From contig NC_087077.1 of NCBI RefSeq assembly GCF_026151205.1, positions 2,604,001 to 2,668,000 on the forward strand: a stretch of 64,000 nt of DNA. The letters run 5' to 3'. Origin of the DNA: Bolinopsis microptera. Its lineage: Eukaryota > Ctenophora > Tentaculata > Lobata > Bolinopsidae. Under the pieces are notes generated by a model that was not told the DNA's origin, did no database searches, and saw nothing but the letters and a program-made list of their open reading frames with translations. The translations under genes were made by a program, and so were the position numbers. Below are positions 41,101 through 48,792 of the stretch, piece after piece. The number at the start of each line of letters is the position of its first letter. Positions within the stretch are counted from its first letter, which is position 1.

Positions 41101-42352
41101 AGATTGCAAGACAAAGGAATGTCAGATGAGGATGCAATGGAATGTGCCTCATACCTGTCCGTCCTGACGTTTAATGCTGTAGGTCAGCTGTTCACACAGG
41201 CTCAGCAGATAAAAGCATGGTTAAACGGGTCAGCTTATAAAATAGCAGAGACTGGTAAACCCGTAAAATGGAGCACCCCTTTAGGTTAGTACATCAACAA
41301 CGAAAATTGTAAAGTATACCATCATGAGCCCCCAGTTTCTCTTTAATAGTTTATTATCCTTTTATTGTTGTGAACATTACAAGTACTTGACTCTTAGGAC
41401 TGTCATGACGTGTGCTAAATTAAACTAACAGTCAACTGAAGAATATAGACCAGTCCCCTTTAAACAGTTTGTTATCCGTATATCTTCGCACGACCAGTAC
41501 CTCACCAGTATTTCCCTCAGGACTGCCCTGTGTGCAGCCCTACACTAAAAACAAGCGGTACAACGTACAGACCCCTGTACAGGGAGTCAGTCTGCAGATG
41601 CCTTCGCCGGAGATGCCGGTTAACAAGCGGAAACAGAGCACTGCATTCCCGCCCAACTTCATACACTCACAGGTATTATTATAAAGGAGCCGAAATTGTA
41701 AGTTTGATGACGATTGACGAGCCAACAATATTAACATTTAAATCATCTTTATTCTCGTTGAACCTTGAGATGAAATCTATTTAAAATTATAAAGGTAAAA
41801 ACCCGATCAGACTATGACCTGAACGATACTCTCTCAATTGTTATCTCTCACAAACTCCCCTCCTTTAGGACTCTACACACATGATGATGACAGCTATAGA
41901 GTGTTACCACGCTGGAATACCTTTTGCGGCTGTGCACGACAGTTTCTGGACATTGCCGTGCCATGTGAACGAGATGAACAGTATTATTAGAGAACAGTTT
42001 ATCCTCATGTACTCTTTTGATGTAAGAACTAAGAAGTTTGTAGGAATTATATTTCTTTGATTCAAGATTAATTTTGATATTTTCCAAGACGAAATGATGA
42101 ATGATCTGCCTAAACTGCTGCACACCATCCACATTCCACAATCCACAGCTACAGTCAAAACTTTACTCGGTTTTTAAGAACAATAATGCTACAGAATTGT
42201 TCATTTATAATTATATCGCTATCTTACAGGTGCTGAAGCAGCTAAAAGAGTCATTTGAAGCGTACAACCCGGAAGTTAAGTTTGGGGACTTGCCTAGTTC
42301 GGGGGAGCTGGATATAGACTGTGTCAGAGACTCGTCCTACTTTTTCAGTTGA
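32138..42352 (+). CDS. POLRMT: Mitochondrial DNA-directed RNA polymerase
   Basis: Fourteen exons: 32138-33280, 33389-33523, 33684-33841, 34037-34171, 34552-34674, 34885-35014, 39468-39593, 39813-40011, 40149-40567, 40773-40929, 41099-41284, 41521-41672, 41869-42021, 42230-42352. Phases match throughout, giving 1112 residues against about 1230 in human. The start is rich in Arg and poor in acids, as for a mitochondrial presequence. The N-terminal domain fills exon 1. The polymerase core shows PMLCPPKPW, FRGRVYP, palm motif A [20 protein letters not shown], the O-helix region RKTLKQTVMTQVYGVTQYGA, motif C AVHDSFW, and the family C-terminus SSYFFS. This T7-like single-subunit enzyme transcribes mitochondrial DNA. 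Intron 6 carries a 4.2 kb repeat element. The last 48 bp of coding sequence, stop included, are the unit of the satellite that follows. Confidence 0.96.
35040..39240. mobile_element. 4.2 kb terminal-inverted-repeat element swollen by tandem repeats, in POLRMT intron 6
   Basis: The left end is a G tract then TGTCACGTCCGTCTATGTCC. The right end is its inverse (GGACATAGACGGACATGACA) then a C tract, with one mismatch in about 26 bp. ATTAAA flanks both sides (35034-35039, 39241-39246), consistent with a target-site duplication. The block TCATAGAATCCAAAAAGGAC lies just inside both ends in the same orientation. This suggests an ancestral element of only about 100 bp whose centre expanded. No transposase frame. 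Confidence 0.8.
35100..39170. repeat. Nested satellite: GGACATAGGC decamers, GGACAAAAA units and CT-rich CCTCCTCAGT tract
   Basis: About 10-bp GGACATAGGC/GGACATAGAC units frame a 3.6 kb CTCCTCCTCAGTCCTC polypyrimidine tract. A higher-order unit (GGACATTAATGGACACC through GTCCGTTCGGTACCC and ACGGACAAAA) recurs at about 35210, 36180 and 37350, so the period is about 1.0-1.2 kb. Near 39012-39160 the decamers appear in inverse orientation (AATGTCCGCC). Confidence 0.92.
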
Positions 42353-45300
42353 GAGCTGGATATAGACTGTGTCAGAGACTCGTCCTACTTTTTCAGTTGA
42401 GAGCTGGATATAGACTGTGTCAGAGACTCGTCCTACTTTTCAGTTGAGAGCTGGATATAGACTGTGTCAGAGACTCGTCCTACTTTTTCAGTTGAGAGCT
42501 GGATATAGACTGTGTCAGAGACTCGTCCTACTTTTTCAGTTGAGAGCTGGATATAGACTGTGTCAGAGACTCGTCCTACTTTTTCAGTTGAGAGCTGGAT
42601 ATAGACTGTGTCAGAGACTCGTCCTACTTTTTCAGTTGAGAGCTGGATATAGACTGTGTCAGAGACTCGTCCTACTTTTTCAGTTGAGAGCTGGATATAG
42701 ACTGTGTCAGAGACTCGTCCTACTTTTTCAGTTGAGAGCTGGATATAGACTGTGTCAGAGACTCGTCCTACTTTTTCAGTTGAGAGCTGGATATAGACTG
42801 TGTCAGAGACTCGTCCTACTTTTTCAGTTGAGAGCTGGATATAGACTGTGTCAGAGACTCGTCCTACTTTTTCAGTTGAGAGCTGGATATAGACTGTGTC
42901 AGAGACTCGTCCTACTTTTTCAGTTGAGAGCTGGATATAGACTGTGTCAGAGACTCGTCCTACTTTTTCAGTTGAGAGCTGGATATAGACTGTGTCAGAG
43001 ACTCGTCCTACTTTTTCAGTTGAGAGCTGGATATAGACTGTGTCAGAGACTCGTCCTACTTTTTCAGTTGAGAGCTGGATATAGACTGTGTCAGAGACTC
43101 GTCCTACTTTTTCAGTTGAGAGCTGGATATAGACTGTGTCAGAGACTCGTCCTACTTTTTCAGTTGAGAGCTGGATATAGACTGTGTCAGAGACTCGTCC
43201 TACTTTTTCAGTTGAGAGCTGGATATAGACTGTGTCAGAGACTCGTCCTACTTTTTCAGTTGAGAGCTGGATATAGACTGTGTCAGAGACTCGTCCTACT
43301 TTTTCAGTTGAGAGCTGGATATAGACTGTGTCAGAGACTCGTCCTACTTTTTCAGTTGAGGGCTGGATATAGACTGTGTCAGAGACTCGTCCTACTTTTT
43401 CAGTTGAGAGCTGGATATAGACTGTGTCAGAGACTCGTCCTACTTTTTCAGTTGAGAGCTGGATATAGACTGTGTCAGAGACTCGTCCTACTTTTTCAGT
43501 TGAGAGCTGGATATAGACTGTGTCAGAGACTCGTCCTACTTTTTCAGTTGAGAGCTGGATATAGACGGTGTCAGAGACTCGTCCTACTTTTTCAGTTGAG
43601 AGCTGGATATAGACTGTGTCAGAGACTCGTCCTACTTTTTCAGTTGAGAGCTGGATATAGACTGTGTCAGAGACTCGTCCTACTTTTTCAGTTGAGAGCT
43701 GGATATAGACTGTGTCAGAGACTCGTCCTACTTTTTCAGTTGAGAGCTGGATATAGACTGTGTCAGAGACTCGTCCTACTTTTTCAGTTGAGAGCTGGAT
43801 ATAGACTGTGTCAGAGACTCGTCCTACTTTTTCAGTTGAGAGCTGATATAGACTGTGTCAGAGACTCGTCCTACTTTTTCAGTTGAGAGCTGGATATAGA
43901 CTGTGTCAGAGACTCGTCCTACTTTTTCAGTTGAGAGCTGGATATAGACTGTGTCAGAGACTCGTCCTACTTTTTCAGTTGAGAGCTGGATATAGACTGT
44001 GTCAGAGACTCGTCCTACTTTTTCAGTTGAGAGCTGATATAGACTGTGTCAGAGACTCGTCCTACTTTTTCAGTTGAGAGCTGGATATAGACTGTGTCAG
44101 AGACTCGTCCTACTTTTTCAGTTGAGAGCTGGATATAGACTGTGTCAGAGACTCGTCCTACTTTTTCAGTTGAGAGCTGGATATAGACTGTGTCAGAGAC
44201 TCGTCCTACTTTTTCAGTTGAGAGCTGGATATAGACTGTGTCAGAGACTCGTCCTACTTTTTCAGTTGAGAGCTGGATATAGACTGTGTCAGAGACTCGT
44301 CCTACTTTTTCAGTTGAGAGCTGGATATAGACTGTGTCAGAGACTCGTCCTACTTTTTCAGTTGAGAGCTGGATATAGACTGTGTCAGAGACTCGTCCTA
44401 CTTTTTCAGTTGAGAGCTGGATATAGACTGTGTCAGAGACTCGTCCTACTTTTTCAGTTGAGAGCTGGATATAGACTGTGTCAGAGACTCGTCCTACTTT
44501 TTCAGTTGAGAGCTGGATATAGACTGTGTCAGAGACTCGTCCTACTTTTTCAGTTGAGAGCTGGATATAGACTGTGTCAGAGACTCGTCCTACTTTTTCA
44601 GTTGAGAGCTGGATATAGACTGTGTCAGAGACTCGTCCTACTTTTTCAGTTGAGAGCTGGATATAGACTGTGTCAGAGACTCGTCCTACTTTTTCAGTTG
44701 AGAGCTGGATATAGACTGTGTCAGAGACTCGTCCTACTTTTTCAGTTGAGAGCTGGATATAGACTGTGTCAGAGACTCGTCCTACTTTTTCAGTTGAGAG
44801 CTGGATATAGACTGTGTCAGAGACTCGTCCTACTTTTTCAGTTGAGAGCTGGATATAGACTGTGTCAGAGACTCGTCCTACTTTTTCAGTTGAGAGCTGG
44901 ATATAGACTGTGTCAGAGACTCGTCCTACTTTTTCAGTTGAGAGCTGGATATAGACTGTGTCAGAGACTCGTCCTACTTTTTCAGTTGAGAGCTGGATAT
45001 AGACTGTGTCAGAGACTCGTCCTACTTTTTCAGTTGAGAGCTGGATATAGACTGTGTCAGAGACTCGTCCTACTTTTTCAGTTGAGAGCTGGATATAGAC
45101 TGTGTCAGAGACTCGTCCTACTTTTTCAGTTGAGAGCTGGATATAGACTGTGTCAGAGACTCGTCCTACTTTTTCAGTTGAGAGCTGGATATAGACTGTG
45201 TCAGAGACTCGTCCTACTTTTTCAGTTGAGAGCTGGATATAGACTGTGTCAGAGACTCGTCCTACTTTTTCAGTTGAGAGCTGGATATAGACTGTGTCAG

Positions 45301-48300: not shown

Positions 48301-48792
48301 TGGATATAGACTGTGTCAGAGACTCGTCCTACTTTTTCAGTTGAGAGCTGGATATAGACTGTGTCAGAGACTCGTCCTACTTTTTCAGTTGAGAGCTGGA
48401 TATAGACTGTGTCAGAGACTCGTCCTACTTTTTCAGTTGAGAGCTGGATATAGACTGTGTCAGAGACTCGTCCTACTTTTTCAGTTGAGAGCTGGATATA
48501 GACTGTGTCAGAGACTCGTCCTACTTTTTCAGTTGAGAGCTGGATATAGACTGTGTCAGAGACTCGTCCTACTTTTTCAGTTGAGAGCTGGATATAGACT
48601 GTGTCAGAGACTCGTCCTACTTTTTCAGTTGAGAGCTGGATATAGACTGTGTCAGAGACTCGTCCTACTTTTTCAGTTGAGAGCTGGATATAGACTGTGT
48701 CAGAGACTCGTCCTACTTTTTCAGTTGAGAGCTGGATATAGACTGTGTCAGAGACTCGTCCTACTTTTTCAGTTGAGAGCTGGATATAGACT
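42305..48792 (+). repeat. 48-bp minisatellite, about 135 copies of the POLRMT C-terminal coding end
   Basis: Each unit is 16 codons reading ELDIDCVRDSSYFFS plus TGA in the POLRMT frame. The first unit is the true end of the gene. Copies are almost identical. Rare indels occur (for example one T lost near 42437, one G lost near 43843 and 44034, one T gained near 45945, a damaged copy near 46050-46078). Each unit also contains CTACTTTTTCAG, a good-looking 3' splice acceptor. The open frames of up to 629 codons in another phase (repeat LRAGYRLCQRLVLLFQ) are a consequence of the 48-bp period and are not genes. Confidence 0.97.

What the first reader, a model, noticed from the sequence alone, without database searches (positions are those of the whole stretch)
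42305..48792. POLRMT stop codon and last 15 codons amplified about 135 times directly behind the gene
The 48-bp unit is exactly the in-frame end of the mitochondrial RNA polymerase coding sequence, including TGA. The satellite therefore grew out of the terminal exon and becomes its 3' UTR if the AATAAA at about 49649 is used. Copies are nearly identical, implying very recent or ongoing amplification. Each unit keeps the reading frame, a stop, and an acceptor-like CTACTTTTTCAG. A transcript would carry over 100 in-frame copies of its own terminus, which could affect decay, localisation or alternative terminal splicing.
Basis: partly seen in the sequence, partly recalled or inferred. Interest (0 to 1): 0.88.

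Follow-up and report, generated by a model that had tools for sequence, protein, structure and literature searches.

The report
Minisatellite grown from POLRMT gene's end
In what is most probably a comb jelly genome, the last 48 bases of the gene for the mitochondrial RNA polymerase, stop codon included, are repeated about 135 times right behind the gene; it is a neat case of a common kind of repeat, its far end is badly assembled, and nothing seen here shows a function.

Summary
Window 42305-48776 is 135 complete head-to-tail copies of a 48-bp unit, 126 of them identical. The first copy is the last 15 codons plus TGA of POLRMT, an end conserved in human and Mnemiopsis leidyi. No second locus was found in the genome, which is probably that of the ctenophore Bolinopsis microptera.

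The array did grow from the terminal exon. But 48795-49643, beyond the clean array, is about 21 more units written in consensus noise: 104 of 106 substitutions copy a neighbouring base, against about 51% in simulated divergence, and homopolymer content exceeds what random mutation should give. So the right end, the copy number and the link to the AATAAA at 49649 are unreliable, and near-identity may partly come from short-read polishing. The 'acceptor' is the codons of the conserved YFFS end and scores in the weaker half of this gene's acceptors. Kilobase-scale arrays are common here: 6 of 20 sampled 10-kb stretches hold one. Best reading: an exon-derived minisatellite, probably neutral.

The parts
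32138..42352 (+). POLRMT gene, 14-exon homology model: 32138-33280, 33389-33523, 33684-33841, 34037-34171, 34552-34674, 34885-35014, 39468-39593, 39813-40011, 40149-40567, 40773-40929, 41099-41284, 41521-41672, 41869-42021, 42230-42352
   Evidence: Joined exons open to the final TGA (1112 residues), 853 of 1102 aligned residues identical to Mnemiopsis leidyi P0001; Pfam PF00940 E 1.5e-53 for the 40133-40723 frame; human POLRMT E 3.4e-93 for an earlier version of the model
42230..42352 (+). Last coding exon of POLRMT, ending ELDIDCVRDSSYFFS and TGA
   Evidence: aligned to the last residue of human POLRMT; Mnemiopsis ends DLDIDCVRDSTYFFS
42305..48776 (+). Clean part of the array: 135 complete 48-bp units, the first of them exonic
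48777..48794 (+). Start of the 136th unit, where clean sequence gives way to noise
48795..49643 (+). About 21 further units as consensus or sequencing noise
   Evidence: 104 of 106 substitutions equal a neighbouring base and 31 of 31 inserted bases extend a run; simulated divergence mean 0.50-0.51, maximum 0.61; adjacent identity 0.421 against 0.277 expected
49649..49654 (+). AATAAA, candidate poly(A) signal of POLRMT; not shown to be used
   Evidence: Only AATAAA/ATTAAA in 48790-50300
49735..49887 (+). First coding exon of the presumed next gene, read by eye (51 codons, then GTAAG); product not identified
   Evidence: no Pfam match for its first 97 residues; its DNA found at this one place in the genome

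Best explanation
A minisatellite born inside the terminal coding exon of POLRMT. A 48-bp stretch (15 codons plus the stop) was duplicated in tandem, and the array then grew by slippage or unequal exchange to probably more than 100 units in the space right behind the stop. Because the first unit still supplies the whole C-terminus and the stop, the protein is unchanged and the rest is tolerated as probably neutral non-coding DNA. Copy number and near-identity in this assembly are approximate: the right end is consensus noise, and the clean part may have been made more uniform by short-read polishing. Shown: the repeat, its identity with the exon end, conservation of that end in relatives, a single locus found, the noise signature, and other kilobase-scale arrays in the same genome. 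Inferred: the duplication mechanism, neutrality, transcription of the array, the poly(A) site, and the effect of polishing.
For: 135 units, 126 identical, the first exactly the end of the POLRMT exon. The end is conserved in human and Mnemiopsis POLRMT, so the exon came first. One locus found, and the 5 PF00940 matches in the genome all lie in this gene. In a 200-kb sample, 6 of 20 stretches hold an array of 1 kb or more with period 10 or more, for example 43 bp x 79 at 99% (L023) and 35 bp x 61 at 98% (L030). No poly(A) hexamer of 13 tested in the unit, no RNA structure beyond shuffles, and no public protein matching the two open frames at E <= 0.001 among the 7986 and 7999 candidates scored.
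Against: The unit ends exactly at the stop codon, about a 1-in-48 coincidence under a random duplication, which neutrality does not explain. The acceptor-like site does score within the range of real acceptors, so splicing into the array is possible. No transcript, no reads, no second individual and no other ctenophore's DNA were available, so neutrality is an absence of evidence. The survey is small (200 kb), and two of its 20 stretches adjoin the window.
Confidence: 0.8

Rival explanations
1. The 850-bp degenerate stretch at the right edge is real, old, diverged array, as expected where homogenisation fades at array ends.
For: It does align to the unit: 712 of 1065 alignment columns match, and its first 400 bp reach 0.65 identity against 0.53 when shuffled. 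Diverged edges of tandem arrays are known (recalled).
Against: 104 of 106 substitutions copy a neighbouring base against means of 0.50-0.51 and a maximum of 0.61 in 36 simulated diverged arrays; 31 of 31 inserted bases extend a run (102 of 106 and 34 of 39 in the slightly different count). Adjacent identity is 0.421, while random mutation of this unit (0.146) should approach the composition value 0.277 and not pass it. Among 2472 windows only this stretch and 77 windows of L029, which reads as runs of all four bases over about 5 kb, reach that excess.
Confidence: 0.04
2. Assembly inflation: the animal has only a few units, and gap closing or repeat handling multiplied them.
For: The array passes into noise at one end. 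The likely source assembly was gap-closed and short-read polished (PMC10232365). Arrays break this assembly: one sampled array starts directly at a 100-N gap (L019 5901-6000).
Against: The left junction and 6.5 kb of array are clean and without gaps. Assemblers more often collapse than expand such arrays (recalled). Other arrays of like size stand between unique flanks.
Confidence: 0.1
3. The array is functional: a kilobase-scale 3' UTR of self-copies, or repeat acceptors, regulate POLRMT mRNA.
For: The unit carries no poly(A) hexamer of 13 tested, so transcripts may read through to the AATAAA at 49649, and one acceptor-like site per unit scores within the real range.
Against: The acceptor is only codons of the conserved YFFS end and 11.5% of other AGs score as high; no unusual RNA structure; no match of the open frames to public proteins; similar arrays are common in the genome. 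No direct test of expression was possible.
Confidence: 0.06

Closest known systems
40-bp VNTR in the 3' UTR of human DAT1/SLC6A3 (PMC4472402, PMC1325255, PMC8502797: titles and abstract starts seen in the listing)
   Same: A minisatellite of similar unit length behind the stop codon of a gene, leaving the protein unchanged; PMC1325255 places it in the 15th exon
   Different: 3-11 repeats there (PMC8502797 abstract start) against 135 or more here. Here the unit is the coding end with its stop; there it is described as lying in the 3' UTR. Its transcription and polymorphism are studied; here neither is known
Coding VNTR in the last exon of CEL, and the minisatellite behind HRAS (both recalled, not looked up)
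   Same: Tandem arrays at, or just behind, the 3' end of a gene
   Different: As recalled, the CEL repeats are translated and the HRAS array is not made of coding sequence; here the repeats hold coding sequence but lie behind the stop
Other kilobase-scale arrays in the same genome (L023 4050-7438, L030 2862-7109, L016 7200-9999)
   Same: Similar unit length (35-51 bp), tens to over a hundred copies, 95-99% matches
   Different: Not known to derive from coding exons (not tested)

Membership tests
Minisatellite | Head-to-tail copies of a unit of roughly 10-100 bp | tested here: met
   48-bp unit, 135 complete copies
VNTR | Copy number differs between individuals | not testable with these tools
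   One assembled genome, no reads
3'-UTR minisatellite | Array is transcribed as part of the mature mRNA | not testable with these tools
   No RNA data; the AATAAA at 49649 lies beyond the noisy stretch
Satellite DNA in the narrow sense | Dispersed to several loci or making up long heterochromatic blocks | tested here: not met
   All 34 matches lie in C6:2646305-2653431 (the search scores only the best candidates, so this is a lower bound); heterochromatin was not tested
POLRMT (mitochondrial T7-like RNA polymerase), for the host gene | RNA_pol domain PF00940 and conserved C-terminal end | tested here: met
   E 1.5e-53; alignment through the last residue of human POLRMT, E 3.4e-93

The most novel reading that the evidence does not exclude
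The last 48 coding bases of an essential gene have become one member of a homogenising tandem array, so that the C-terminus of the mitochondrial RNA polymerase evolves in concert with more than 100 untranslated copies of itself: gene conversion can both repair it and overwrite it, and the mRNA may end in a 3' UTR of several kilobases of self-copies whose length varies between individuals. The exonic unit equals the array consensus in 48 of 48 bases, which fits this, but also fits recent origin or polishing.
Probability: 0.07. Interest if true: 0.65.

Novelty: new member of a known kind. Interest (0 to 1): 0.33.

Why it matters
It is a clean example of a minisatellite whose origin can be named to the base, because its unit is still a conserved coding end. 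It also warns against reading copy number, homogeneity and 3' UTR content of such arrays from one assembly. If the array is real and variable, it would let one test whether an essential exon end can be drawn into concerted evolution.

Tried and rejected
One search used a wrong coordinate offset and a wrong frame; one search replaced both. One search had wrong exon ends, corrected. The 15-exon model held an extra exon (42067-42153) that the Mnemiopsis protein lacks; the 14-exon model drops it. Searches were run with that 29-residue piece still in; it does not touch the array end. RNA structure of four units: nothing unusual, 154 of 200 shuffles fold at least as well. Translated repeats in public proteins: no match at E <= 0.001 among the 7986 and 7999 candidates scored, which are only those sharing most words.

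Papers: I sought exon- or gene-derived arrays or arrays holding a stop codon (15 of 18 listed; 1 of 1; 3 of 3; 10 of 49), and ctenophore minisatellites (8 of 1144). In titles and abstract starts of those listings I saw no repeat made of a gene's coding end with its stop. That is all this negative rests on; most subscription papers are not in the library. (gap closing and polishing, 8 of 54) was a listing only; none of it was opened. Of PMC10232365 and PMC11797021 I saw passages only.

Not tested: whether Mnemiopsis or other ctenophores carry the array. The genome search says that G000 has no relatives there, the genome-contig collection is described as bacterial and archaeal, and I ran no scan of viral contigs, genome contigs or metagenome contigs. 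Whether the likely source genome used CLR or HiFi reads is not settled: the passages name CLR, HiFi and Iso-Seq libraries for several species together. The species name is probable, not proven: 232 contigs here against 346 scaffolds in the published table.
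Full report
OBSERVATION. Tandem Repeats Finder reports an array at 42305-48812 with period 48, 135.9 copies and 99% matches. Cutting the sequence into units gives 135 complete units from 42305 to 48776; 126 are identical and 9 differ: two substitutions (A>G at the unit of 43360, T>G at 43552), six one-base indels (T lost at 42401 and 47003, T gained at 45902, G lost at 43840 and 44031, C lost at 47242) and one complex unit of 44 bases at 46047. The first unit is the end of an exon that reads VLKQLKESFEAYNPEVKFGDLPSSGELDIDCVRDSSYFFS and then TGA; unit 1 is ELDIDCVRDSSYFFS plus the stop. 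The base before the array, G at 42304, differs from the A that precedes the other units, so the left edge is sharp.

THE GENE. A 14-exon model from 32138 to 42352 is open to its final TGA, with GT-AG introns (junctions printed). One exon frame matches Pfam PF00940 at E 1.5e-53. The last 425 residues of an earlier 15-exon version align to human POLRMT through its final residue, E 3.4e-93. The nearest protein found is Mnemiopsis leidyi ACHWQZ_G013925 (best 120 of 6014 listed). The 14-exon protein shares 853 of 1102 aligned residues with it, and that protein ends DLDIDCVRDSTYFFS. The end of the protein is thus old, and the array derives from the exon, not the reverse. The five PF00940 matches found in the genome all lie in this gene, and all 34 matches of the unit lie in C6:2646305-2653431, which is this array and its noisy tail (counts there are lower bounds).

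THE ORGANISM. The genome has 264,652,675 bases, its contig C1 has 26,206,493 and C11 20,825,282. A published table gives Bolinopsis microptera 265 Mb, largest chromosome 26.2 Mb and N50 20.8 Mb (PMC11797021, passages seen). With a Mnemiopsis protein as nearest relative, B. microptera is the likely source; against it, the table lists 346 scaffolds and this genome has 232 contigs. According to passages of PMC10232365, the B. microptera genome was assembled with wtdbg, scaffolded with HiRise, gap-closed with TGS-GapCloser and polished with Illumina reads and Pilon.

THE RIGHT EDGE IS NOISE. From 48795 to 49643 the units go on in degraded form. An alignment to the circular unit gives 712 matches, 106 substitutions, 31 inserted and 216 deleted bases, that is about 21.5 units. 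Of the substitutions 104 of 106 equal a neighbouring base, and 31 of 31 inserted bases extend a run. An earlier count over 48777-49650 with a slightly different rule gave 102 of 106 and 34 of 39. In 36 simulated arrays with random substitutions and indels at three rate settings the mean neighbour fraction was 0.50-0.51 and the maximum 0.61. Without any alignment, 0.421 of adjacent bases in the stretch are identical; the clean array has 0.146 and the base composition predicts 0.277, toward which random mutation should move it but not beyond. Of 2472 windows of 849 bp from the 64-kb window and 20 sampled stretches, 78 reach this excess: one is this stretch, and 77 lie in L029, where about 5 kb read as runs of all four bases. 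In one search, which tested the flanks of 30 overlapping TRF rows, no other array had a flank that was both clearly like its unit without being the array itself and almost wholly neighbour-copying. So the noise type occurs elsewhere in the assembly, but a noisy array tail like this was seen once. I take the stretch as about 21 units seen through failed consensus; whether gap closing, assembly consensus or read error made it I cannot tell.

The array has 135 clean units as assembled, but the true number is open. Short reads cannot be placed among identical 48-bp copies, so polishing can make the copies, the exonic one included, look more alike than they are; this is inference and was not tested. 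The AATAAA at 49649 is the only AATAAA or ATTAAA from 48790 to 50300, and none of 13 poly(A) hexamers tested occurs in the unit. Readthrough to it is plausible if the stretch is contiguous, but the connection runs through the noise. The next gene appears to begin with ATG at 49735; its first 97 residues matched no Pfam family, and its DNA was found at one place only. The acceptor-like string is made of the codons TAC TTT TTC AGT; against a matrix from this gene's 13 acceptors it scores 3.5, above 4 of the 13 (leave-one-out scores -2.5 to 11.9), and 11.5% of 3288 other AGs score as high. It is therefore within the range of real acceptors but not remarkable. Four units folded as RNA are no more stable than shuffles (z 0.82). 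The two open frames matched no public protein at E <= 0.001 among the candidates scored.

HOW COMMON IS THIS HERE. Of 20 stretches of 10 kb (two next to the window, 18 at round coordinates on 12 contigs), 8 hold an array of at least 500 bp and 6 one of at least 1 kb with period 10 or more; TRF rows with period 10 or more and score 150 or more cover 13.7% of the 200 kb, a figure that includes a few rows in the noisy L029. Examples of like size are 43 bp x 79 at 99% (L023), 35 bp x 61 at 98% (L030, twice) and 51 bp x 55 at 95% (L016). One array begins directly at a 100-N gap (L019), and another holds many indels (L018, 80% matches, 12-13% indels), so arrays are weak points of this assembly.

MECHANISM AND VERDICT. 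Most likely a 48-bp tandem duplication at the end of the POLRMT coding sequence expanded by slippage or unequal exchange, in a genome where kilobase-scale arrays are frequent. The first unit keeps the protein intact, so the rest is free to expand. That the unit ends exactly at the stop is about a 1-in-48 coincidence, unless the true breakpoints lie a little further right and are hidden by shared bases; it is left unexplained. Nothing seen here shows a function, though no expression data could be consulted. The closest known parallel is the 40-bp VNTR in the 3' UTR of DAT1/SLC6A3 (titles and abstract starts). Interest is modest: a tidy exon-derived minisatellite with a misleading right edge.

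Noticed in passing
35049-39240, inside POLRMT intron 6 (35015-39467): A 4.2-kb insert bounded by inverted ends (arms 35049-35089 and 39200-39240, 41 nt, 90% complementary) that begin in runs of G and C, with ATTAAA outside both ends. Inside are TCC-rich arrays with a repeated long segment (36594-37252, two copies of 326 bp at 98%). It looks like a DNA-transposon-like insert carrying arrays.
   Followed up: partly
L029 1800-7000 (G000 contig C8, about 1.0 Mb): About 5 kb of sequence reading as runs of all four bases (adjacent identity 0.544 against 0.274 expected): probably a failed consensus patch in the assembly.
   Followed up: partly
L019 5901-7093: A 24-bp array that begins directly at a 100-N gap.
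   Followed up: no
L018 2491-3899 and 9630-9999: A 19-bp array with 80% matches and 12-13% indels, looking like unpolished long-read sequence.
   Followed up: no
17426-18826: A 40-bp array of 35 copies at 97%, with flanks no more like its unit than shuffles.
   Followed up: no
59769-60116: A perfect 7-bp repeat (TGTGTCA, 49.7 copies, 100% matches).
   Followed up: no
26948-28249 (+): A 433-residue open frame that by eye resembles part of a reverse transcriptase of a non-LTR element, but no Pfam match at E 0.01.
   Followed up: no
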